Part shown: positions 2,519-36,216 of the stretch, piece by piece
How positions within the stretch are numbered: position 1 is the first letter of the stretch
How the letters are laid out: each line of letters opens with the position of its first letter
NCBI RefSeq assembly: GCF_008630635.1
Contig: NZ_CP043869.1
Span: 434,001-498,000 of the forward strand
DNA length: 64,000 nt
Direction: 5' to 3'
DNA from: Neptunomonas concharum
Lineage (GTDB): Bacteria; Pseudomonadota; Gammaproteobacteria; Pseudomonadales; Balneatricaceae
Translations under genes and position numbers: made by a program
Notes under the pieces: generated by a model
What the model saw: only the letters and a program-made list of their open reading frames with translations
What the model was told of the DNA's origin: nothing
The model's database searches: none

Positions 2519-3399
2519 ATCTGCTGATACTACCGCATATTAAGATTCATAACGCAAATGCGTTATCGAGTCCTTTCACAATAGGTTTTCCTGCGATGAC
2601 TGCATGGCTGGGCTTTACTCATGCGTTAGAGCGCAAACTAAACTCAAAGGGTTTTCCTGATTTGATGCTACACAGTGTAGCTGTGGTGAGCCATCACTGT
2701 GATGTGCAAACCTATAAAGGTGAAGGTGACTTTGTTCATTCAATTATTGGTACAGGTAATCCGCTGGACAAGGATGGTTCGCGCTCAGCATTTATCGAAG
2801 AGGCACGTTGTCACTTAGATGTTTCGCTAGTGATTGAGTGGAGTGGCAATGATGAGGAAGTCCAAAATGCTAGCTTTGTTGAGCAATTACAATCTGTGAT
2901 AGCTGGGATGAAGGTTGCTGGTGGCGATGTACTGAGTTTATACAAGCCTATCATTGACTCTGTGATTGATTCACAAGATAGATCGCGTCTGATACGTACA
3001 CTCATGCCAGGATATGTACTGATTGAAAGGCGAGACTTGATGATTGAAGCGATGCAGGAGGGCGCTGATGCTTTAGATGCCTTGCTAAGCTATCTCACAG
3101 TTAATCACAGTTGTGAGCAACTCCCCGACGAAAGTATTGTTTGGCGTAGTCAACGCAAAGCCAGAGGTTGGATTGTACCGATAGCAACGGGTTTTCAGGG
3201 TATATCCCCACTTGGTGAGGCTAAAAATCAACGCGACCCCACTGTGCCACACCGCTTCGCCGAAAGCGTCGTTACACTCGGTGAATTCATTATGGCGCAT
3301 AAAGTTAAGCATCTCGATGACATGCTTTGGCAGTATGCCCCAGAAGTAGAAAACGATCTTTACCTTTGTCAGCAAGTTAATGCGAATAACTCATATTAA
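2515..3399 (+). CDS. csy2: Csy2 / Cas5f, type I-F Cascade subunit
   Basis: This 294-aa protein is the Cas5-like subunit that pairs with Csy1 and caps the 5' end of the crRNA. The N-terminus (LLILPHIKIHNANALSSP) followed by GFPAMTAWLGFTHALERKL is characteristic of Csy2, a stretch I recognise as family-typical. Its ATG overlaps the csy1 stop (ATGA), and csy3 follows after 14 bases with an AAGGA-type ribosome site. The length is normal for the family. It presumably acts only within the cytoplasmic Csy complex. Confidence 0.93.
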   Translation: MNLLILPHIKIHNANALSSPFTIGFPAMTAWLGFTHALERKLNSKGFPDLMLHSVAVVSHHCDVQTYKGEGDFVHSIIGTGNPLDKDGSRSAFIEEARCHLDVSLVIEWSGNDEEVQNASFVEQLQSVIAGMKVAGGDVLSLYKPIIDSVIDSQDRSRLIRTLMPGYVLIERRDLMIEAMQEGADALDALLSYLTVNHSCEQLPDESIVWRSQRKARGWIVPIATGFQGISPLGEAKNQRDPTVPHRFAESVVTLGEFIMAHKVKHLDDMLWQYAPEVENDLYLCQQVNANNSY

Positions 3400-3413
3400 T
3401 AAGGAAATATATC

Positions 3414-27761: not shown

Positions 27762-28481
27762 TTACTCTATCCATCCTGCAACGGCCTGTACGGGCTCTGC
27801 AGAATTTGGATAAGTTAGCCAAATCGCGATCGCCTCTCGTTCAGTCTTTCGTTCAGGTAATGAGAATGCCCAGTTATTACTAGATAGAGCTTGATTAAAA
27901 TACGTGACAACAAACTGATTTTGCAGGATTTTATCTTGGTTCTCTCCTGCAGTAATCTCTGACGTTAGATCAAAACTTAATATCGCAACGTGTGCCGCCA
28001 GTTGCTCCTCTTGGGGAAAGTGAATGCTGACATGGCGATCTTCAGAGAGGTTAGCTGTTAAAGTATTTGCCTCTTTTGCAGCGACTTTAGGTAATGCTTT
28101 TCCGATGAAAAAGCCTCGCCACTCTTTTCCATCAACCACCCAGCCAGGTGTATAGACATTGCTAATGGCACCCGTCTTCTTGAGATGGTATTGGCGCTGG
28201 CTATTTAAAGCAGTGGCAAATGGATCTTTCCAGCCCAGATAGTCCCAGTAATCGACATGAAAAGCGACAGGAATCCGCTGTTTCCATAGCCCGGGGTCCT
28301 CAAGTAATTGGTTGAGCTTTTTGTCAGCTGGTGGGCAGCTGGAGCAGCCCTGAGAAGTATAAAGCTCCACTAATTGCGGAACATTGCCAGACTGAGTAAA
28401 TATTTGCTCGGCTGCAGCATGGGTTACGCTTAACGGTAATAGCAGTAGGCAGGCAAGTTGAGTAAAGCGTTGGTGCAACAT
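27762..28481 (-). CDS. DUF1223 thioredoxin-like exported protein
   Basis: This 239-aa protein has a signal peptide (LACLLLLPLSVTHAAAEQ). The segment LVELYTSQGCSSCPPADKKLNQLL marks DUF1223, which has a thioredoxin-like fold with CxxC. PVAFHVDYWDYLGWKDPFA and TPGWVVDGKEWRG are further family landmarks. It is predicted to be periplasmic, with a possible redox role, but no function is established that I can state. A ~75-bp gap separates it from the dienelactone hydrolase-like gene on the same strand. Confidence 0.87.
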   Translation of the reverse strand: MLHQRFTQLACLLLLPLSVTHAAAEQIFTQSGNVPQLVELYTSQGCSSCPPADKKLNQLLEDPGLWKQRIPVAFHVDYWDYLGWKDPFATALNSQRQYHLKKTGAISNVYTPGWVVDGKEWRGFFIGKALPKVAAKEANTLTANLSEDRHVSIHFPQEEQLAAHVAILSFDLTSEITAGENQDKILQNQFVVTYFNQALSSNNWAFSLPERKTEREAIAIWLTYPNSAEPVQAVAGWIE

Positions 28482-28558
28482 GATCTGATCTCTTTGTTAT
28501 CTAGAGGCTCAGACCTTGATTGCACCGCAGAGTTCAGCTTTAGTGCCTACGTAGAGGG

Positions 28559-29290
28559 TTAGCGTGTTATATCATTTAGAAACATACTCAAACGCTGCCA
28601 AGATTTTTTATCAGCGTCTTCTCTATAACGTTCGCTGCCAAACACGGTAAAAGCGTGAGGTGCACCACTGTACGTAATCATCTCATGGGGCATACCCGCT
28701 GACTCCAGCTCACTTGCTAAATCGGCAAATTGATCCATAGTGATCGCTGTATCAGCGGTGCCATGTAACACCAATAGTTTGCCTTTAGCTTGGCTGTAAT
28801 CCTGCCCTTGAGGTGTTTTTAAGCCGCCATGGAAAGTTACAAAACCTTTAAGGTCGGCTCCCGAACGTGCCATTTCTAATACGCCAGCACCACCAAAACA
28901 GTAACCCATTGCAACGGCATTGTTTCGATTTCCGCCAAGCGCCACGGCTTTATTAAGTGCACCATCCATAAGAGAGCGTAATTTAATACGATCGTTATAG
29001 AGTTCACCGGTATGTTGCTTTTTGTCTTCCATCTTGGTGGGGCGAATACCTGCACCAAACAGGTCTGCAGCGAAAACACTGTAGCCCATATCCGCCAGCA
29101 TATGAGCACGTTTAATCTCATAATCAGTGAGGCCATCCCAGTCATGGAGCAACAAAACCAAAGGTGTATTATCGCCTGCGCTAACGTAGTAGCCTTCATA
29201 GGCTTGACCATTAATTTGGTAGGTCACATTAGCGGCCATTAGCGAGGCGGGGAGTAACGAGAGTAAGAAAAGCAAAGCAGTTTTCATCAC
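28559..29290 (-). CDS. Exported dienelactone hydrolase family protein
   Basis: This is a 243-aa alpha/beta hydrolase with a signal peptide (TALLFLLSLLPASLMAANV). The Cys nucleophile is in MGYCFGGAGVLEMAR, the Asp in LVLHGTADTAITMDQ, and the His in GAPHAFTVFG, giving the Cys-Asp-His triad of the DLH family. Its periplasmic location distinguishes it from classical catabolic DLH. The substrate is unknown. It may be cotranscribed with the DUF1223 gene on the same strand. Confidence 0.88.
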   Translation of the reverse strand: MMKTALLFLLSLLPASLMAANVTYQINGQAYEGYYVSAGDNTPLVLLLHDWDGLTDYEIKRAHMLADMGYSVFAADLFGAGIRPTKMEDKKQHTGELYNDRIKLRSLMDGALNKAVALGGNRNNAVAMGYCFGGAGVLEMARSGADLKGFVTFHGGLKTPQGQDYSQAKGKLLVLHGTADTAITMDQFADLASELESAGMPHEMITYSGAPHAFTVFGSERYREDADKKSWQRLSMFLNDITR

Positions 29291-29410
29291 CAGGCTCCTA
29301 TTATTATTTGATCTGGTTTATGTTGATGAAGCGTACCATAAAGATGCACAGCCAAAACTCATCTTAATGAGTCTGAATCGTAATCTTATACGTCTTGGGA
29401 GAGCAACTAG

Positions 29411-30574
29411 ATGAAGAAAATATCCCCATGTCTGGTCCTACTAGTATGTTTATGGACAGTGGGTAGCGCGGCTGCCCCTGTGGTAGAGCAAACGATCATG
29501 ATTGCTGAAACACCCTATACGGTAAACGTAAAAAAAGGCTATCGTTTGACGTTGCTAACTGACCAAATTCCACAGCCGAGATTACTGACCTTTCATGAAA
29601 GTGGGGAGCTTTTTGCTGGTTCTCGTTCGGGTCGGATCTATCGGCTCAAGCCTCCCTATAAACAGGTGGAAGCAATCGGACCTGACTTTGCATATCCACA
29701 CAGCGTTGCTTTTCGAGGAAGTACGTTGTTCGTCGCCAGTACGGAAGCAGTTTATTATGGCCGTTATCAATCCGGAGGCGATATTGAGAGCCTCAATCTA
29801 CTGGCTAAACTTCCTGAAGGTCGAGGTCATAATAGTCGAACGGTTAAAGTAGGGCCGGACGAGCGGATCTATGCCAGCTTAGGTATATCAGGTAACTGCA
29901 GTAATGAATATTTACATGACACCTACCCTTTTGAGAAACGCAGAGGAGGCGTGTTTGTCTTAGATGAGAGCATAAACCCACCGCAATGGCGCACCTATTC
30001 ATCGGGTTTGAGAAATCCGGTTGGATTTGATTGGTCCCCCTCAGATCAAACCTTGTATGCGTCAAACAATGGTCCTGATCATCTTGGTTTTCAGCAACCT
30101 CCCGAGCAGTTTACGCAATTATCGCAAGGAAGCTTTCATGGAATGCCGTGGTATCAGTATGACGGTGAGCGTGTACATCGCGACCGTTGCCAGAGTAGCC
30201 CAGCGCCTTACCCAATAGAAAGTGTTGTAAAACCGACGGCAACCTTTCCTGCACGTAATGCGCCTATGGCCGTGACCTTTGTGCCTAATCATGCTGCCTT
30301 TGGTGAGTTGGCTGGACATGCGTTAGTCGCCTTAAGGGGCTCATGGGCAGTCGATGAGAGTGGCAATAAAGCGAGTCGCCGTGAGCCAAAAATTGTTGCT
30401 ATAACGGTCGAGGGAAGTGACAAAGGCAAAGTCGAAACGCTAGTGAGTGGATTTCAATTACCCAACGGCGACCGATGGGCGAGGCCTGTGGGGATCGCTA
30501 TCGGGCCTGATAATAGGGTATATATTTCAAGTGACTCCCCATCAGGACTATATCGGTTGGAGAAAGAGCTGTAA
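29411..30574 (+). CDS. PQQ-dependent sugar/sorbosone dehydrogenase-like beta-propeller protein
   Basis: This 387-aa exported protein has a signal peptide (ISPCLVLLVCLWTVGSAAAP). Beta-propeller text follows, typical of soluble aldose sugar/sorbosone dehydrogenases: VKVGPDERIYASLGISGNC, RNPVGFDWSPSDQTLYASNNGPDHLG, and RPVGIAIGPDNRVYISSD. It probably binds PQQ in the periplasm and oxidises a sugar or related alcohol, but the substrate is not known. The gene has its own short promoter region and a strong hairpin after it. Confidence 0.82.
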   Translation: MKKISPCLVLLVCLWTVGSAAAPVVEQTIMIAETPYTVNVKKGYRLTLLTDQIPQPRLLTFHESGELFAGSRSGRIYRLKPPYKQVEAIGPDFAYPHSVAFRGSTLFVASTEAVYYGRYQSGGDIESLNLLAKLPEGRGHNSRTVKVGPDERIYASLGISGNCSNEYLHDTYPFEKRRGGVFVLDESINPPQWRTYSSGLRNPVGFDWSPSDQTLYASNNGPDHLGFQQPPEQFTQLSQGSFHGMPWYQYDGERVHRDRCQSSPAPYPIESVVKPTATFPARNAPMAVTFVPNHAAFGELAGHALVALRGSWAVDESGNKASRREPKIVAITVEGSDKGKVETLVSGFQLPNGDRWARPVGIAIGPDNRVYISSDSPSGLYRLEKEL

Positions 30575-30593
30575 CCTCATCGCTTGTCGTGCG

Positions 30594-30634
30594 ATATAGT
30601 CAAAGCCGAGTTCAAGTCTCGACTTTGACTATAT
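30594..30634. terminator. Long hairpin between convergent sugar dehydrogenase and GDPD genes
   Basis: Arms of 17 bases (30594-30610 and 30618-30634) pair with one mismatch around a seven-base loop. The outer part is A/T-rich (ATATAGTCAAAG / CTTTGACTATAT), suiting a bidirectional terminator. Confidence 0.8.
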
Positions 30635-30640
30635 AAATAG

Positions 30641-31942
30641 CTATAGCTTCATGCAATTAGCGTAGTAGGTTGTGGTCGCTGGCCAATCAGAAAATAACCC
30701 GATTATACCCACGTCTTTGGCTAGCACATCGACAACCGTAAACATATCACCATCCGTGCTAATCACGTTGGCCATCTCTTTATCAGCATCTGGGTTTTGG
30801 CCATTTAATGTCTGGTAATACCAACCACCGCCGGTCTTTAGATGCCCAGAGCGTTCTAACGTCCATGTGATAATTTTTAAGCCTGCTGTCTTAGCTGCTT
30901 TAGCATAAGTAGAAGGGGTAACTTTACCGTTTTCTGCATCTAGCAACATCCACATAGGTGGGGCAATAATATTTACGCCATCCTCTACGAGCTGCTCCAT
31001 GGAAGGCTTCCATGTTTTAGGAGAGCGATGATCAAAAGATTCATCATCATAACGGCCATCCAGATAAACGGCTTGTTGAGCAAATAAAGGTTCCGACTTG
31101 ATCCAGTAGCGCACATCTTCAATATTAAATGATTGAGGCCATACATGTGTGGCTGGCACGCCAGCCTCTTTATACTCATTAATCATTTTTTGCGCATAGT
31201 CTGTTTGCGAAAAGCCATTAAAAGGCATCTCGACGCTGGGCGCTTTAAGCTCGGGTGTCATTTTTGTCCCCAGAGCCTTAAATAACTCAATGCTCTCTTT
31301 ATGGGACATCACCGTGCCTAGGCTAGCGTAAAGATCGGTTCTCCAGCTCGCGGTGCCGTTTAAAAACTCAGCGACGGTTGTGGCTTTTTTATTAGAGGCG
31401 TCCATCTTGCCTGTGAGTGTTTTGAACTCAGCCAGGGTAATGTCACTCGTGCAGCATTTAGCAGTTGCGGGCGTTACCAGTTCACCGGACTCATTAAACT
31501 GCGCTGGCTGAAAAGGAACCGAGCATTTAGCGGCTAAGGGAGTGGCCAAAATATTAGTGGTTGTTGCTAAGTCACACTGTGAATGACGGCAAACCAACTC
31601 AGTGTCTTTAGTAAAAGTTACATCACACTCAAGAATGCCGGCCCCCATTCTTGCAGCGGCAATATAAGACTCTCGTGTGTGCTCAGGAAATTGCATGGCA
31701 GCGCCACGATGGCCGATGGAAAAATCAGAGCGAGTAAAAGGGCCGTTTTCACAACTTTTCAATTTTTCTTTTAGCTTTCCTTCCTTCATATCATCGATCA
31801 AAAAGAAAGGACGCGGGCCTAGTTGAACATGTGCAGTGTTCTGGTCCATAACAGCAGGTGTTGCCGTAGTGCTGGCGGCATAACTAGCCGATGCAGACAG
31901 CATAGTAGTGACTACAGTTAAAGCGAATGTGAAGCGACGCAT
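30641..31942 (-). CDS. Exported glycerophosphodiester phosphodiesterase
   Basis: This 433-aa protein has a signal peptide ([18 protein letters not shown]). Catalytic GDPD text is [26 protein letters not shown], then [19 protein letters not shown], in place of the more usual HDP end. Towards the C-terminus, [15 protein letters not shown] closes the TIM barrel. It would cleave glycerophosphodiesters to glycerol-3-phosphate outside the cytoplasm. It is longer than typical GDPDs (250-350 aa), with an insertion containing Cys pairs. It is monocistronic, with a LacI-type operator motif ~150 bp upstream. Confidence 0.88.
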
Positions 31943-32094
31943 ATCCGTCTCCTAGTTTTTCCTAGAGGTGGGAGCCTATCTAATGCTGGCATTACTTGGA
32001 TTGGAAGCAATCAGCAACGTGGACCACACTCTAGCGAGCAAATATTGCGAATTTGTTCTGGTTTATTGATAGTTTGATGACGGAAAGCGTTATT

Positions 32095-32108
32095 TGGAAA
32101 CGTTTTCA
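32095..32108. promoter_or_regulatory. LacI-family-type operator motif
   Basis: TGGAAACGTTTTCA fits the generic LacI/GalR-family operator TGnAAnCGnTTnCA at every fixed position, within a near-perfect 16-base palindrome. It lies about 155 bp upstream of the GDPD gene (minus strand) and 58 bp upstream of the XRE remnant (plus strand). No LacI-family gene is in the window. Confidence 0.45.
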
Positions 32109-32165
32109 AATTCTATGGCAACGAATAAGTTGCCTTTGGAGTGTTGAGCAACATATGTGTTTACC

Positions 32166-32336
32166 ATGATAAAGTCGATGCTCTACCAGATTAAACAGCG
32201 GCGTGTGGAACTTTGTCTCAAACAGAATGACATGATGCTGCGTGTGGGCGTATCTCGTCAGCAATATCAGCACTTGGAATCCAAAGGAAACCCAGGCCAG
32301 ACACCTTGGAGTAAAAAGGGTTCTCTAGATTCGTAG
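32166..32336 (+). pseudogene. Decayed XRE/HipB-like helix-turn-helix regulator
   Basis: The ATG at 32166 opens a 56-codon frame with RRVELCLKQNDMMLRVGVSR and then QQYQHLESKGNP, a helix-turn-helix of the XRE type. After GNP the frame goes wrong. Reading one base over gives RPDTLE, then in nearby frames KGFSRFVV, as in the family's expected continuation (R-x-DTLE-LIAKGL-S-x-V). I infer at least two small deletions near 32285-32310. No hipA-like partner follows. Confidence 0.55.
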
Positions 32337-32526
32337 TATAGGGTGCAGATTGCTGCTATTTTTGCGCGATGCATAGCCATCGCTGGTGTTCAGGTACACA
32401 GAGTATTTTAGATAATTTCTAGGCCTGTCGACTTAGTTTTTTTGATAATTATAATCTAGTTGTAAAGTGAGCTTTTTATTTTGGTAGTGATTATAAGGTT
32501 CTTTGAGATTATTAACTAAATAATAT

Positions 32527-33114
32527 TTATCTGTCCCTGTTTTTATCTTCGTCTTCGTCTTCGTCTTCGTCTTCGTCTTCGTCTTCGTCGTTCTTGGTTT
32601 CTTTGAGTAAAGATGTATTATCTGTTTTTGAACCTGGTGTGGTAAAACCCTTAGAAGATGTTCCATTCTCAGTTTGAGATAAAGCGATTTTCTCAATCGT
32701 AAGAAGTGTTTTCTCATAAATCTCTATAGTTTTTTCGGGGGGCAGCCTTAGATTACTACTTAATTCGCATGCTCGATAGAGTAGATCCCGGGTTAATAAT
32801 ACGGATGGAGATCTTCCACCCAGTGAAGATATTAGTTCGCCAGTGCTCTCTTCAGCACTATTTCCTAAACCTACTCGAGAGTTAACGCCAAAGCTGACCC
32901 CCTCACTAATACCTACTGCATAGTCTGGAGAGGGTGTTCTACATATGCGTTCTCTAGAGTTTTCACTATAGAAATATGTTTCTTCTGATCCGCTAGGTAG
33001 TACAACTGTGCTGATTCCGTCTCGCTCATAGAGTTCACCAGAAAAGGTTTTACCTAGGTTTGAACAGCCTGAAATGAAAAAACAAATAGTGATGAAAAAT
33101 ATTTTTACTTTCAT
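32527..33114 (-). CDS. Unknown lipoprotein with acidic Asp-Glu repeat tail
   Basis: I do not recognise this family. The ATG at 33114 gives MKVKIFFITICFFISGCSNL, a clean lipoprotein signal with lipobox ISGC; an upstream ATG at 33177 would bury it. The 195-aa product has an ordered-looking middle (SFGVNSRVGLGNSAEESTGE, DLLYRACELSSNLRLPPEKTIEIYEKTL) and ends in about seven Asp-Glu pairs, then KNRDR. The tail is encoded by a hexanucleotide repeat. It follows the exported gene at 33122-33736 by seven bases, so the two are probably one operon. The DNA is AT-rich compared with the flanks, which suggests acquisition. Confidence 0.75.
   Translation of the reverse strand: MKVKIFFITICFFISGCSNLGKTFSGELYERDGISTVVLPSGSEETYFYSENSRERICRTPSPDYAVGISEGVSFGVNSRVGLGNSAEESTGELISSLGGRSPSVLLTRDLLYRACELSSNLRLPPEKTIEIYEKTLLTIEKIALSQTENGTSSKGFTTPGSKTDNTSLLKETKNDEDEDEDEDEDEDEDKNRDR
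32546..32589. repeat. Hexanucleotide tandem repeat (GTCTTC)n
   Basis: About 7.3 copies of GTCTTC (plus strand) encode alternating Asp and Glu at the C-terminus of the lipoprotein. Because the unit is six bases, slippage would lengthen or shorten the acidic tail by two residues without breaking the frame. Confidence 0.95.
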
Positions 33115-33121
33115 AGGTATC

Positions 33122-33736
33122 TTAATTTTTTGGTTTATAATCAACTCTTTGAATGCTTTTAATTTTGAATCCATCAAAAGTCACAGAAAGAATGTTATTG
33201 TTCTGTTCAGGCCCGCTGGAATACTGAGGATGATCACCAATTTTAATAAGTAAATCTTCACGGTGACGACTATATCCCCATATTTTCACATGAATTATTT
33301 TGCTTTCCTTTGTATCTGTATTGATAAGCTTTAAAGTGCCTATAAGATTTGGGTGTTTTTCATGAATGCTCCAAGTAAGAGAGAAGCCATAGGCGTTACC
33401 TCCCTTTGTATTAAGGATATCATTAGGTATATGCTTACCAGACATACAGTTGTGGGTGATGTGTCTGAAACTATGTGTGAACTCTGCTTTTATGTTTTCA
33501 TTAGTTAAAAAGAAAATGCTTCTTTTTTGATATGGATGATGATTACACTTATCAAATGTTGTTCCGGTCCAGTCAGCAGAAAACTTCTCTATTTTGTGTA
33601 AATCCTTTGAATCTAACGTAATGGGACTATCCCCACTACCAAGTGTAACCTCAGCAGAGTTGGCGATATTTCCATAAATAAATATTACTAAGGAGGAAAA
33701 AAGGGCAGGCATGAATTTATTTACACGAGAGTTCAT
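33122..33736 (-). CDS. Unknown exported protein
   Basis: I do not recognise this 204-aa protein. It has a signal peptide (MPALFSSLVIFIYGNIANSAEV), so it is probably periplasmic or secreted. Six His residues and two Cys lie in FDKCNHHPYQKRSIFFLTNE and FTHSFRHITHNCMSGKHIP, a possible metal or disulfide site. The rest looks beta-rich (LIGTLKLINTDTKESKIIHVKI). A good sigma-70 promoter lies upstream, and the unknown lipoprotein follows after seven bases. The pair is confined to the AT-rich island and may act together at the envelope; this is inferred from adjacency only. Confidence 0.75.
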   Translation of the reverse strand: MNSRVNKFMPALFSSLVIFIYGNIANSAEVTLGSGDSPITLDSKDLHKIEKFSADWTGTTFDKCNHHPYQKRSIFFLTNENIKAEFTHSFRHITHNCMSGKHIPNDILNTKGGNAYGFSLTWSIHEKHPNLIGTLKLINTDTKESKIIHVKIWGYSRHREDLLIKIGDHPQYSSGPEQNNNILSVTFDGFKIKSIQRVDYKPKN

Positions 33737-33771
33737 ATTAGAGAGCCTGTTTTATTATTAGCTAGCATATA

Positions 33772-33799
33772 AAGATAGTGCATATAAAATAGTTGTCAA
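33772..33799 (-). promoter_or_regulatory. Sigma-70 promoter of the unknown exported-protein operon
   Basis: On the minus strand a perfect TTGACA (33794-33799) is followed after 16 bases by TATCTT (33772-33777). The start site would fall some 30 bases before the ATG at 33736. Confidence 0.65.
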
Positions 33800-33865
33800 T
33801 TTTTTAACATAGAAATGACCTTTCCTTATATTTAGAACCACTTTTTTGATGAGATTTTCCTCAAT

Positions 33866-35125
33866 TTGAGGGGCTCCCTTGGACAAGGCAGCTTTGAACC
33901 ACATGACAAAGGAATGTACTTCGTAAATGAGAAAGCAGGCTTTTTCTCTGATCTGCTTGATACAAAGCTCTTGGCATCAACGATAGATACCGTTAGGCAA
34001 CTCTACAGACTTACTCCTGATCAACCCTTCTTAGCACAGGTGCATGAATGCTATGAAAAAGCTATGCATGAATCCCAATGCCTAGAGTTACATGGTGTTT
34101 GGTTTGCTGTTGGAAGTGGTGGACAGTCTGGCTATAAGTACCGTCTTCAGAACAATGAGGAAGGCATCATCATCTTTCTTAAGAATCGACGCCAGTCAAG
34201 TGATTGTCGTGGATCTCATCTGAAAATAGAGTTCAGTCCTCATTACCTGTTAAACCGTAAACCTGAGGAAGTACAAGATTTCGCGGATGCGGTTTCTCAA
34301 TGGGTTTCTGTCGATGCTCCAGAGCATGGGGGAGTGGCATTACATCTGGCCTTGGATGTACAGGGATGGGAACCATCAGAAAATTTCCTTGAACGTCTTA
34401 CAACGCGCTCTAAAAGGCTTTTCTGTCATGATGCGATAGAGAAAGTAGATTTTAGTTTATCTGAGGTGGCGGTGACGTATGGGAACAGACAGACAATAAC
34501 CGCAGGCTCTGTTAAATCAGTACAGATGTGCTGCTATGACAAAACAGCTGAAGCTAAAAAGTCAGATAAAATCCACTATATGGAATCAGTGTGGCAAGGT
34601 CAGGATAAAAACGGACTGATAGAGAACGTAGATTATGACTCTGAAAAGAATGTAAGACGCATAGAGATGCGTTTACACCATTCCGTCATGAAGCAATTCC
34701 AAAGGGGTTCTGATATCGAATTGAGAAGCTACCTTCAAGCCTATGAGCATTTGGGGGCTTTGTGGCGTTACGGAATGAATTGCTTTCGTTTGGACTATAT
34801 AAAGGATGTGATAGACCCATACTGGCAACTATTTATAGAAGATGCAGACTTTCACTGGTGTCATCAAGGCAAAGCGTACAAAAGAGCCTATAAAAAGCCC
34901 GGTGTAGGTAATGAGAAAAACGTCACGCTAGCTTTGGGAAACTGGATATCCATTATTGCTAGATCAAAAATGAACAGTCATACAGCGTGGAAATGTCTAA
35001 AAAAGTCAGGAATGTTTGGTGACATCGTAGAGTATTACGGAAACCGTGGAATTGATCCTTCACAGCTTTTCGAGATGATCACACAATCCCTGATAGATAG
35101 GCGAATGGTTGGTAAGGCGGCGTGA
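33866..35125 (+). CDS. Rolling-circle-type replication initiation protein (plasmid/filamentous-phage Rep-like)
   Basis: This ~419-aa protein resembles the Rep_trans/RstA-like initiators of rolling-circle plasmids and inoviruses. A middle segment reads VTYGNRQTITAGSVKSVQMC, then CYDKTAEAKKS and KNVRRIEMRLHHSVMKQF, matching the family pattern of YxGsrxS...lxxYDK...RxExRL. The listed start is TTG. An ATG at 33914 (MYFVNEKAGFF) is possible, and the frame is open upstream to 33836 (HFFDEIFLNL), so the 5' end may be truncated. No coat, assembly or integrase gene accompanies it. It marks the island as derived from a mobile replicon. Confidence 0.62.
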   Translation: MRGSLGQGSFEPHDKGMYFVNEKAGFFSDLLDTKLLASTIDTVRQLYRLTPDQPFLAQVHECYEKAMHESQCLELHGVWFAVGSGGQSGYKYRLQNNEEGIIIFLKNRRQSSDCRGSHLKIEFSPHYLLNRKPEEVQDFADAVSQWVSVDAPEHGGVALHLALDVQGWEPSENFLERLTTRSKRLFCHDAIEKVDFSLSEVAVTYGNRQTITAGSVKSVQMCCYDKTAEAKKSDKIHYMESVWQGQDKNGLIENVDYDSEKNVRRIEMRLHHSVMKQFQRGSDIELRSYLQAYEHLGALWRYGMNCFRLDYIKDVIDPYWQLFIEDADFHWCHQGKAYKRAYKKPGVGNEKNVTLALGNWISIIARSKMNSHTAWKCLKKSGMFGDIVEYYGNRGIDPSQLFEMITQSLIDRRMVGKAA

Positions 35126-35206
35126 TGAATTGGTTAAATAATGGTCAATAAATTGCTCTAATAGAGTTTTCTGATATACTTTGGTTGATATTAACGGAGT
35201 TATTTT

Positions 35207-35374
35207 ATGCCTCAAACCGTCGTACATATGCCTAACACTCGGGTTCGCAGAGCTAATGCTGCTGATGTGAAACGCGCTGCTGTCTGTGGTGATGCGATTT
35301 TTGCCTATTTTTTAGAGCATGGAAAGCTTCCAGAGTCTAAAGAGCAGCTACAGATAGCCAAGTCTAAAAAGTAA
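35207..35374 (+). CDS. Putative antitoxin (55 aa) of a YafO-type toxin-antitoxin pair
   Basis: This small gene has a good ribosome site (AACGGAG, seven bases before the ATG). The product starts MPQTVVHMPNTRVRRANAAD and includes AAVCGDAIFAYFLEHGKLPES, with a basic N-terminal third and a charged C-terminal tail. I recognise no family. It stops three bases before the GTG of the YafO-like toxin gene, the usual antitoxin-first order, so the antitoxin role is inferred from position and size. Confidence 0.6.
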   Translation: MPQTVVHMPNTRVRRANAADVKRAAVCGDAIFAYFLEHGKLPESKEQLQIAKSKK

Positions 35375-35377
35375 TTA

Positions 35378-35788
35378 GTGGCTGCAAGAGTCCTTACTGC
35401 TCCTATATTCAGAATGTTGGATAATTGGGAGAATCATAAGCGAACCTTCGAAGACTATAAAATTCTAGGGATTCAGCCTGAGTTTTATGGTCGTGATGCT
35501 GATCTTTCTTATCCTGACGTTCATCATATACATTTAGCTACAGATGAAGACACCGTTCTTCGGTGGTCTAAGATTTAGTATTCCTTCTATAGAACTCATG
35601 ATGCAAAGCGTCCTGAGTCTGATTTCTGGCTGATATATGCCTATGATGATTTGGAGGATACTTACCTACTGTTAACCATTATTGGTCCGGATGCGCATAA
35701 CAGTAACCACTTTAGAGCGTACTTAGGTCAACTCTATACAAGCTGTGTTCAGCCTTGGATAAATGGACGTTTAGAAGGTTTGGAATAA
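35378..35788 (+). pseudogene. YafO-like mRNA interferase toxin interrupted by an in-frame amber codon
   Basis: The frame runs from GTG 35378 to TAA 35786-35788 (136 residue positions) with one TAG at 35576-35578, codon 67. The first part contains FEDYKILGIQPEFYGRDA, then VHHIHLATDE. The part after the TAG contains YSFYRTHDAKRP, then FWLIYAYDDLEDTYLLLTI and IGPDAH. Aligned from memory, these follow Escherichia coli YafO in order (SYKRDGVLPDIFGRDA, HIHLANE, FSRTND, LVY, WLLIAILKPEPH). A CAG-to-TAG change is the simplest cause. Conservation of the remainder suggests a recent event. Confidence 0.75.
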
Positions 35789-35812
35789 GAAAGTGGACAA
35801 AATGTGGACAGT

Positions 35813-35846
35813 AAAAACCAAAAAGCTGTCTAACTAGTTGGTTTTT
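35813..35846 (-). terminator. Terminator of ssrA (hairpin with U-run on the minus strand)
   Basis: AAAAACCAA and TTGGTTTTT form a nine-bp stem around a 16-base loop. Read on the minus strand, it lies just past the tmRNA 3' end and finishes in TTTTT. It could equally serve the toxin transcript from the other side. Confidence 0.6.
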
Positions 35847-35857
35847 AAGGAAAAATT

Positions 35858-36216
35858 TGGTGGAGGTGGCGGGTTTCGAACCCGCGTCCGCCAATCCGCT
35901 GCCATAAGATCTACATGTTTAGACTTCTCTATTGAGTTAACCCAGCACGACCCGAGAGTCAGGGTGTTTAGGGCGAGCCTTTTTAGTTTTAACCGTTCAG
36001 CTTAAGGCGAAGCTTCCGGGCGATTCTGTCTCGAATGACACCGCGAACCTCTGAGTTACAGACACCTCTGAGTGCGGCGCTAGCGGCCCTTAGGCTGCTA
36101 GAGCGTAGTTATCGTCGTTAGCAACTATAACTGTGTAGTAATGGATTTACGTGATTCACTACACTCACGACATGCACTTAAGGTTTTGTAACCGGCGTCG
36201 AAGCCATGTCACCCCC
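35858..36216 (-). ncRNA. ssrA: tmRNA (ssrA)
   Basis: Transfer-messenger RNA rescues stalled ribosomes by adding a degradation tag. The 5' end (GGGGGUGACAUGGCUUCGACG, at 36216 downwards) pairs with the 3' acceptor strand (CACCUCC-ACCA, at 35858 upwards) in a seven-bp stem. The T-arm GGGTTCGAAACCC (35869-35883 region) is complete and CCA is encoded. The tag frame (36122 down to 36090) reads ANDDNYALAA then UAA, a typical gammaproteobacterial tag. It is a one-piece form of ~359 nt, with smpB directly upstream on the same strand. Confidence 0.96.

What the first reader, a model, noticed from the sequence alone, without database searches (positions are those of the whole stretch)
32527..33736. Unrecognised two-gene exported operon: lipoprotein with acidic repeat tail plus His-rich exported partner
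Neither protein resembles a family I know. One is a lipoprotein (lipobox ISGC) ending in seven Asp-Glu pairs; the other has a signal peptide and a cluster of His and Cys. They share a good promoter and are separated by seven bases, inside an island of mobile origin. Such pairs can act as surface exclusion, immunity or metal-binding systems, but nothing in the sequence decides this.
Basis: partly seen in the sequence, partly recalled or inferred. Interest (0 to 1): 0.5.

Follow-up and report, generated by a model that had tools for sequence, protein, structure and literature searches.

The report
Lipoprotein paired with variable exported proteins
A decayed filamentous-phage remnant in a bacterial genome carries a two-gene unit whose lipoprotein belongs to an unnamed family usually encoded beside an exported protein that differs from place to place and is sometimes toxin-like, which suggests a mobile effector pair of unproven function.

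Summary
An exported His-rich protein (33122-33736) and a lipoprotein with an Asp-Glu tail (32527-33114) lie on the - strand, 7 bp apart, beside a divergent Pf1-type inovirus Rep in a low-GC island that ends at ssrA; I saw no Zot, coat or integrase gene there. The exported partner is an orphan in every collection searched, so the exact pair was found nowhere else. The lipoprotein is not an orphan: it belongs to an unnamed family with a conserved two-cysteine core, found in MAGs and genomes labelled Alpha-, Beta- and Gammaproteobacteria. By inspection, 20 of 21 assessable loci of the close subfamily have an exported protein within about 1.3 kb. These proteins form about 14 families; the three recognisable ones are aerolysin-type, phospholipase A2 and ricin-lectin. 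Five partner types recur with their lipoprotein in two genomes each, and one pair lies in a tailed phage. Best reading: mobile cargo, an exported antagonist or effector plus an outer-membrane lipoprotein that protects from, tethers or exports it, working like Bacteroides CDCL-BcdI. Anatomy and family are shown; the function is inferred.

The parts
33122..33736 (-). Exported partner gene, 204 aa: signal peptide, His/Cys-rich mature part; orphan
   Evidence: no relative
32527..33114 (-). Lipoprotein gene, 195 aa from ATG (lipobox FISGC, Ser at +2), conserved core with C58/C116 and GGRSP..R..LYRACE, (DE)x7 tail; unnamed family
32548..32589 (-). GACGAA x7 repeat encoding the acidic tail (position read off the sequence)
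33772..33799 (-). Promoter-like site TTGACA-16-TATCTT upstream of the pair (10 of 12 matches; such sites are not enriched in the region)
33866..35125 (+). Pf1-type inovirus replication initiator (Rep), 419 aa, divergent from the pair
35858..36216 (-). ssrA (tmRNA); its 3' end borders the island, and it also borders Rep-bearing prophages in five other genomes read here
   Evidence: Pf-tmRNA described in PMC7549136 (passages)
35207..35788 (+). Toxin-antitoxin-like remnant: 55-aa ORF followed by a YafO-like frame with an in-frame stop
   Evidence: YafO E = 0.17 for the first piece, below cut-off
32157..32336 (+). Short XRE-type HTH ORF (59 aa), probably truncated, near the left end of the island
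   Evidence: HTH_3 E = 0.0021, below cut-off

Best explanation
The pair is cargo stranded in a decayed Pf1-type inovirus prophage at ssrA. The lipoprotein belongs to an unnamed, predicted outer-membrane lipoprotein family whose close members are normally encoded beside one or more exported proteins. Shown: the family, its conserved core, the recurring exported neighbour, the presence of unrelated neighbours beside related lipoproteins, and the conservation of some lipoprotein-partner pairs between genomes. Inferred: the exported protein is an antagonist or effector acting on membranes or surfaces of other cells, and the lipoprotein protects the producer from it at the outer membrane, as BcdI does for the Bacteroides CDCL pore-former. 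One conserved core beside many unrelated partners suggests that it acts through a common step (membrane, export route or surface) and not by a toxin-specific fit.
For: Family: 14-row alignment with 12 invariant columns, 22-44% identity to the window protein; members in records labelled Alpha-, Beta- and Gammaproteobacteria and in further genomes. Exported neighbour: 11 of 15 loci (strict rule) or 14 of 15 (relaxed) against 35% or 46% expected for two neighbours, and 3 of 10 or 4 of 10 in the distant subfamilies; three loci found afterwards all had one, 30-40 bp away on the same strand (export judged by eye). Toxin-type partners: aerolysin-type (L114 to Cry51Aa1, E 4e-4; L112 to L114, 7e-6), phospholipase A2 (L139, PF09056 2.2e-6, just under the curated cut-off; solved PLA2 0.0026), ricin-B lectin (L133, 5.6e-19). 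Exchange: in the tree the window lipoprotein groups with L106, L137 and L138 (support only 81/86), whose partners are unrelated to its own and to each other. Pairs kept together: L181/L182 partner 90% and lipoprotein 82% identical; L020/L183 partner 47% and lipoprotein 42%; L107/L108 and L109/L111; L114/L115. One pair lies in a tailed-phage contig with terminase and portal (L105). Precedent: BcdI, a surface lipoprotein that blocks the pore-former encoded beside it on a mobile element (PMC11169675, passages).
Against: No functional data. The partner has no relative and no usable model (pLDDT 38), so calling it an antagonist rests on the partners of related lipoproteins, of which only 3 of about 14 families are recognisable. 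Immunity proteins usually diversify with their toxins (recalled); here the lipoprotein is the constant part. L113 has no exported partner; L022 could not be judged (contig edge). Export was called by a home-made rule or by eye. Two of the positives (L113, L115) rest on ordinary genes; without them the counts are 9 and 12 of 15 (0.045 and 0.008 on the same table). The first run with wrong gene limits gave 9 of 15 against 6 of 12 in the control group. The window's row has a long branch in the tree and its place is unsure. L138's aerolysin-like look was not confirmed.
Confidence: 0.4

Rival explanations
1. Tether or export factor: the lipoprotein is an outer-membrane handling protein that moves the exported partner across, or holds it on, the cell surface, as speculated for FrpD with FrpC in Neisseria. 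The partner need not be toxic.
For: A constant lipoprotein with variable cargo fits a generic handling role better than toxin-specific immunity. No row in which a lipobox was seen has Asp at +2, which by the recalled Lol rule predicts outer-membrane sorting. FrpD binds its operon partner with Kd about 0.2 nM (PMC5233953, passages).
Against: Partners differ completely in sequence and size (90 to about 940 aa), so no common recognition signal is visible. I saw no secretion genes beside the loci, without a systematic search.
Confidence: 0.25
2. Chance neighbours: two unrelated accessory genes left in a prophage graveyard, each with its own envelope function.
For: The partner has no second occurrence. 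The island is decayed (no Zot, coat or integrase ORF seen; no left att repeat; broken TA-like frame).
Against: 7-bp spacing in one orientation, and the recurrence of exported neighbours for this family.
Confidence: 0.17
3. Superinfection or surface exclusion: a phage moron whose lipoprotein blocks entry of related phages or plasmids.
For: The gene lies beside an inovirus Rep here; a distant (subfamily B) member is the last gene of an apparently complete Pf1-type prophage at the same site (L021); another member lies in a tailed-phage contig (L105).
Against: Reading the neighbours, I saw phage genes beside only these three loci (integrase genes also lie near the long forms in Vibrio plasmids); this was not a systematic search. 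None of the seven Rep-bearing loci read in relatives carries the lipoprotein. 1 of 80 inovirus contigs has it, and that is the L021 prophage again. No match to a named exclusion family.
Confidence: 0.1
4. Metal handling: the His/Cys-rich exported protein binds Zn, Cu or Ni and the acidic-tailed lipoprotein assists.
For: Seven His and two Cys within residues 47-102; acidic tail.
Against: No metal-binding family match. Only 7 of the other 18 close family rows have an acidic, Lys/Arg-poor tail. I saw no metal regulator or transporter in the island's ORF list.
Confidence: 0.06

Closest known systems
Bacteroides CDCL pore-former with BcdI surface lipoprotein (PMC11169675, passages read)
   Same: Exported protein(s) and a predicted surface lipoprotein encoded side by side on a mobile element.
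   Different: Bacteroidota; the partner there is CDC/MACPF-like and no such match was found for this partner; the BcdI sequence was not compared here; immunity was shown there, not here.
Neisseria FrpD-FrpC (PMC5233953, passages read)
   Same: Outer-membrane lipoprotein and exported partner in one operon.
   Different: RTX partner secreted by type I; FrpD is described as lacking similarity to proteins of other organisms; sequences not compared here.
Pf (Pf1/Primolicivirus) prophages, Pf-tmRNA type (PMC7549136, passages read)
   Same: Rep of the Pf1 type; tmRNA site; a toxin-antitoxin moron.
   Different: Here no Zot, coat or integrase gene and no left att repeat was found; no lipoprotein/exported pair appears in the passages read.
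SitA lipoprotein toxins of myxobacteria (PMC8546572, abstract and outline read)
   Same: Lipoprotein in an antagonism module carried in variable repertoires.
   Different: There the lipoprotein is itself the toxin with a variable C-terminal nuclease; here the lipoprotein core is the constant part and matches no toxin family.

Membership tests
Pf1-type inovirus prophage | Pf1-type replication initiator | tested here: met
   (PHROG 1159, 1e-113, residues 8-419)
Pf1-type inovirus prophage | Zot/pI and coat genes upstream of Rep | tested here: not met
   ORF lists, read by eye: the lipoprotein/partner operon lies there instead; Zot lies there in L021
Pf1-type inovirus prophage | Integrase, and att repeats at a tRNA/tmRNA gene | tested here: not met
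   No integrase-sized ORF left in the island; no same-strand exact repeat of 12 bp or more of 35781-35960 within 28001-35780. The tmRNA itself is present
Unnamed lipoprotein family (close subfamily A) | Lipobox; Cys-x5-Asp; G-R-x-[PL]-[AS]-V-L-x2-R-[DE]-x2-Y-R-x-C-E-x3-N | tested here: met
Unnamed lipoprotein family (close subfamily A) | Exported protein encoded next to it | tested here: met
   window pair; family; not met by L113
Pore-former plus immunity lipoprotein (CDCL-BcdI kind) | Exported partner carries a pore-forming domain | tested here: inconclusive
   No match in Pfam, NCBIfam, PHROGs or PDB sequences; model unusable
Pore-former plus immunity lipoprotein (CDCL-BcdI kind) | Lipoprotein blocks the partner's toxicity | not testable with these tools
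   needs expression experiments
Surface or superinfection exclusion lipoprotein | Sequence match to a named exclusion family | tested here: not met
Periplasmic metal-binding protein | Match to a metal-binding family | tested here: not met
   (no family); only chance-level PDB hits; the His/Cys cluster itself is present

The most novel reading that the evidence does not exclude
An undescribed modular system of Proteobacteria: one conserved outer-membrane lipoprotein with a two-cysteine helical core serves as common partner (protector, exporter or surface dock) for many unrelated exported effectors, which are exchanged beside it like cassettes and are sometimes moved by phages; the window's orphan His-rich protein would be a new effector type recognisable only through its lipoprotein.
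Probability: 0.3. Interest if true: 0.72.

Novelty: new variant of a known kind. Interest (0 to 1): 0.45.

Why it matters
If the arrangement is real, the lipoprotein is a handle for finding exported effectors that have no recognisable sequence family. It also gives a testable system in which one lipoprotein core goes with pore-former-like, lipase-like and lectin-like partners, unlike toxin-immunity pairs where both sides diversify.

Tried and rejected
Rejected: the astrovirus capsid hit to the lipoprotein (E 3e-4, below cut-off) covers its C-terminal part with the acidic tail and is taken as low complexity. The 'ATP:cob(I)alamin adenosyltransferase' label of the Vibrio homologues rests on a below-cut-off match to residues 169-243, outside the conserved core. 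A weak phmmer match of the partner to an L105 ORF (E 0.025, under the inclusion threshold) is taken as chance. The idea that the lipoprotein is a regular inovirus gene was dropped: of 12 further loci read (seven with Rep; L171 only 1.1 kb; L174 begins at a contig end) none has it, and of 80 inovirus contigs kept out of 230 related only L069 has it, which is the L021 prophage again. Led nowhere: structure prediction of the partner (pLDDT 38); of the lipoprotein only a helical hairpin, about residues 103-151, is fairly confident (mean 53.5), so no fold search was run. hhalign of L138's partner against the aerolysin-type ones was negative; L112 against L114 was weakly positive (E 4e-4, probability 35%). 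Further viral scans and plasmid/phage searches with other family members gave nothing new. Five paper searches listed no paper that, by title and abstract start, describes this lipoprotein family; only passages, or abstract and outline, of four papers were read.

Rows dropped and choices: in the signal-peptide test, control loci L003 and L141 were left out, and gene limits of overlapping neighbours and lipoprotein starts were corrected, also for the test set. The window, L109, L111 and L022 were not in that test (GC-rich gene calls, contig edge). The 15 loci are also the set in which the pattern was first seen; only L181-L183 came later, and L181 and L182 are not independent of each other. Two counted positives (L113, L115) are ordinary genes, not partners.

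Full report
WHAT IS THERE. The partner (33122-33736, - strand, 204 aa) has a signal peptide and, with cleavage assumed after residue 28, a mature part with 12 His and 2 Cys; seven His and both Cys lie within residues 47-102. The lipoprotein starts most plausibly at the ATG at 33114, 7 bp after the partner's stop, has the lipobox FISGC and ends in seven Asp-Glu pairs encoded by seven GACGAA repeats. In 2000 first-order resamplings of the stretch the longest ATG ORF was 152 aa. The promoter-like site upstream (TTGACA-16-TATCTT) is plausible, but such sites are not enriched in the region (15 against 10.1 +/- 3.8).

WHERE IT SITS. The operon diverges from a 419-aa Rep. Rep matches PHROG 1159 over nearly its whole length (1e-113) and 27 phage records: 22 named Pseudomonas phage, 3 Primolicivirus (Pf1) and 2 Synechococcus phage. 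The island ends at the 3' end of ssrA. In the ORF lists I saw no Zot, coat or integrase gene, and no same-strand att repeat of 12 bp or more remains, so I take it as a remnant. Pf prophages that use tmRNA as attB, and toxin-antitoxin morons in Pf phages, are described for P. aeruginosa (PMC7549136, passages); here a YafO-like frame with an in-frame stop lies between Rep and ssrA. A Rep of this kind occurs in 12 of 96 relatives, the own genome included. In the loci read, G006, G002, G029 and G054 have it within about 2.5 kb of ssrA, and so does G348. G348 (L021) has an apparently complete prophage there: Zot and integrase by Pfam, coat genes by position and eye, Rep 37% identical to the window's. 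A distant (subfamily B) member of the lipoprotein family is its last gene before the tmRNA. None of the 12 loci fetched, seven of them with Rep, carries the lipoprotein, so it is occasional cargo and not a standard inovirus gene.

THE LIPOPROTEIN FAMILY. No library names it. Relatives were found in Vibrio megaplasmids (long forms, E 9e-5 to 5e-3) and weakly in Flagellatimonas (0.01) and Caballeronia (0.6) (the last two confirmed by a profile), in 4 of 96 relatives, 6 of 341 genomes of the order, 9 of 369 of the class, 7 of 398 of the phylum, 5 of 98 relatives of G979 and 2 of 71 relatives of G840. These tallies count the query genome or the centre and include long, distant and weak (E about 1e-4) members. 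Eleven loci, at least one of them (L113) a genome already seen, came from one scan of 84,980 genomes that used a single peptide pattern. Fourteen close members (subfamily A) share 12 invariant positions, including two Cys and R-x3-Y-R-x-C-E. In the tree subfamily A separates from a distant subfamily B (L021, L134, L140; 100/100). No row in which a lipobox was seen has Asp at +2; L020 and L110 were matched at the wrong Cys by the script and were read by eye, and L106 shows no lipobox in the called ORF. An acidic, Lys/Arg-poor C-terminus (at least 7 Asp+Glu and at most 2 Lys+Arg in the last 30) recurs in L020, L105, L112, L133, L138, L139 and L022, 7 of the other 18 close rows, so the Asp-Glu tail is an extreme case of a common but not universal trait.

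THE NEIGHBOUR RULE. By inspection, 20 of 21 close loci with assessable flanks have an exported protein within about 1.3 kb; L113 is the exception and L022 (contig edge) is not counted. Distances between called ORF limits on the same strand: 7 bp in the window, 30-40 in L181-L183, about 30 in L133, 59 in L137, 68 in L105, 69 in L112, 80-88 in L111 and L109, 348 in L106, 383 in L110; in L020 the ORFs overlap or lie 29 bp apart depending on the start. In L139 the partner is divergent, in L107 convergent, in L108 on both sides, in L114 about 1 kb and in L116 about 1.3 kb away; L115's copy is a fragment without its N-terminus. A home-made signal-peptide rule found a positive among the two nearest genes in 11 of 15 loci (expected 35%, binomial 0.003) or, without the no-later-TM condition, in 14 of 15 (expected 46%, 1.6e-4). 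In subfamily B and the long forms it was 3 of 10 and 4 of 10, near background. Two of the positives (L113, L115) rest on ordinary genes; without them the counts are 9 and 12, with 0.045 and 0.008 on the same table. A first version with wrong gene limits gave 9 of 15 against 6 of 12. The three loci found later all have an exported neighbour by eye, two of them closely related to each other.

THE PARTNERS. By my grouping they form about 14 families. In an all-against-all comparison (L181-L183 were compared with only some) hits between loci were few: L107/L108, L108/L110, L109/L111, L112/L114, and a small membrane protein in L108/L116 with a weak match in L139. Recognisable: L114 resembles a parasporal crystal protein and Cry51Aa1 (3e-4 and 4e-4) and the lectin LSLa (0.017), which are aerolysin-type as I recall; L112's two upstream ORFs resemble L114 (7e-6 and 0.001; ETX_MTX2 0.034, below cut-off); L139 has a prokaryotic phospholipase A2 (PF09056 2.2e-6, 0.7 bits under the curated cut-off; solved PLA2 0.0026); L133 has ricin-B lectin domains (5.6e-19). 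L138 looks aerolysin-like to the eye only; no search confirmed it. The rest, including the window's partner, have no convincing family match. Five partner types recur in two genomes each with their lipoprotein: L181/L182 (90% identical), L020/L183 (47%), L107/L108 (51%), L109/L111 (69%) and L114/L115 (86%). In the tree the window's lipoprotein groups with L106, L137 and L138, whose partners are unrelated; the support is modest (81/86) and the program flags the window's branch as long and its place as unsure. So lipoprotein and partner appear to stay together for a while and then to be exchanged. One pair lies in a tailed-phage contig with terminase (3.5e-123) and portal (3.8e-89) genes (L105), a second case of phage carriage.

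HOW IT PROBABLY WORKS. Shown: gene anatomy, family, neighbour rule, differing partners, phage association. Inferred: the exported protein acts on other cells or surfaces, and the lipoprotein works at the outer membrane to protect, tether or export. The closest worked example is the Bacteroides CDCL pore-former, whose operon on a mobile element encodes BcdI, a surface lipoprotein that blocks pore formation (PMC11169675, passages). FrpD-FrpC is the precedent for tethering (PMC5233953, passages). I place protection first because the recognisable partners are of types found in toxins, but the constancy of the lipoprotein across unrelated partners argues for a generic step, so tether/export is a close second. 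Membership in either named system was not tested by sequence and is not claimed.

LIMITS. The partner has no relative in any search made; reach only close relatives. Its AlphaFold2 model is unusable. Gene calls in fetched loci come from a simple ORF picker, and exported status from a crude rule or from inspection.

Noticed in passing
window 35207-35788: Toxin-antitoxin-like remnant between Rep and ssrA: a 55-aa ORF and a YafO-like frame with an in-frame stop (Pfam E 0.17 for the first piece, below cut-off).
   Followed up: partly
window 32157-32336: 59-aa XRE-type HTH ORF, probably the front part of a truncated regulator.
   Followed up: no
L166, L167, L174, L176, L021 (ssrA loci of other genomes): ssrA recurs as the neighbour of Pf1-type Rep/prophages in this genus, family and order, with different cargo between Rep or integrase and tmRNA (e.g. 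a 403-aa PHROG 5978 protein in L167).
   Followed up: partly
L113:3266-4789 and L183:3935-5434: A CSS-motif EAL phosphodiesterase (53% identical between the two) lies next to the lipoprotein in two loci, and a GGDEF/EAL gene lies next to the long form in Vibrio plasmids (L002, L003).
   Followed up: partly
L108:9793-10065, L116:2372-2572 and 3185-3403, L139:6847-7629: A small membrane protein recurs near the lipoprotein in L108 and L116 (40-44% identical); L139 has a 260-aa protein with only a weak match to it (E 0.019). Possible second component.
   Followed up: partly
L181:3555-5899 and L182:7338-9682: Upstream of the lipoprotein-partner pair, on the same strand, lie a conserved histidine-kinase-like and a response-regulator-like gene (by eye); about 4.4 kb is 80% identical between the two genomes.
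   Followed up: partly
L136:2354-3163: A patatin-like phospholipase ORF (by eye, not searched) diverges from a long-form family member.
   Followed up: no
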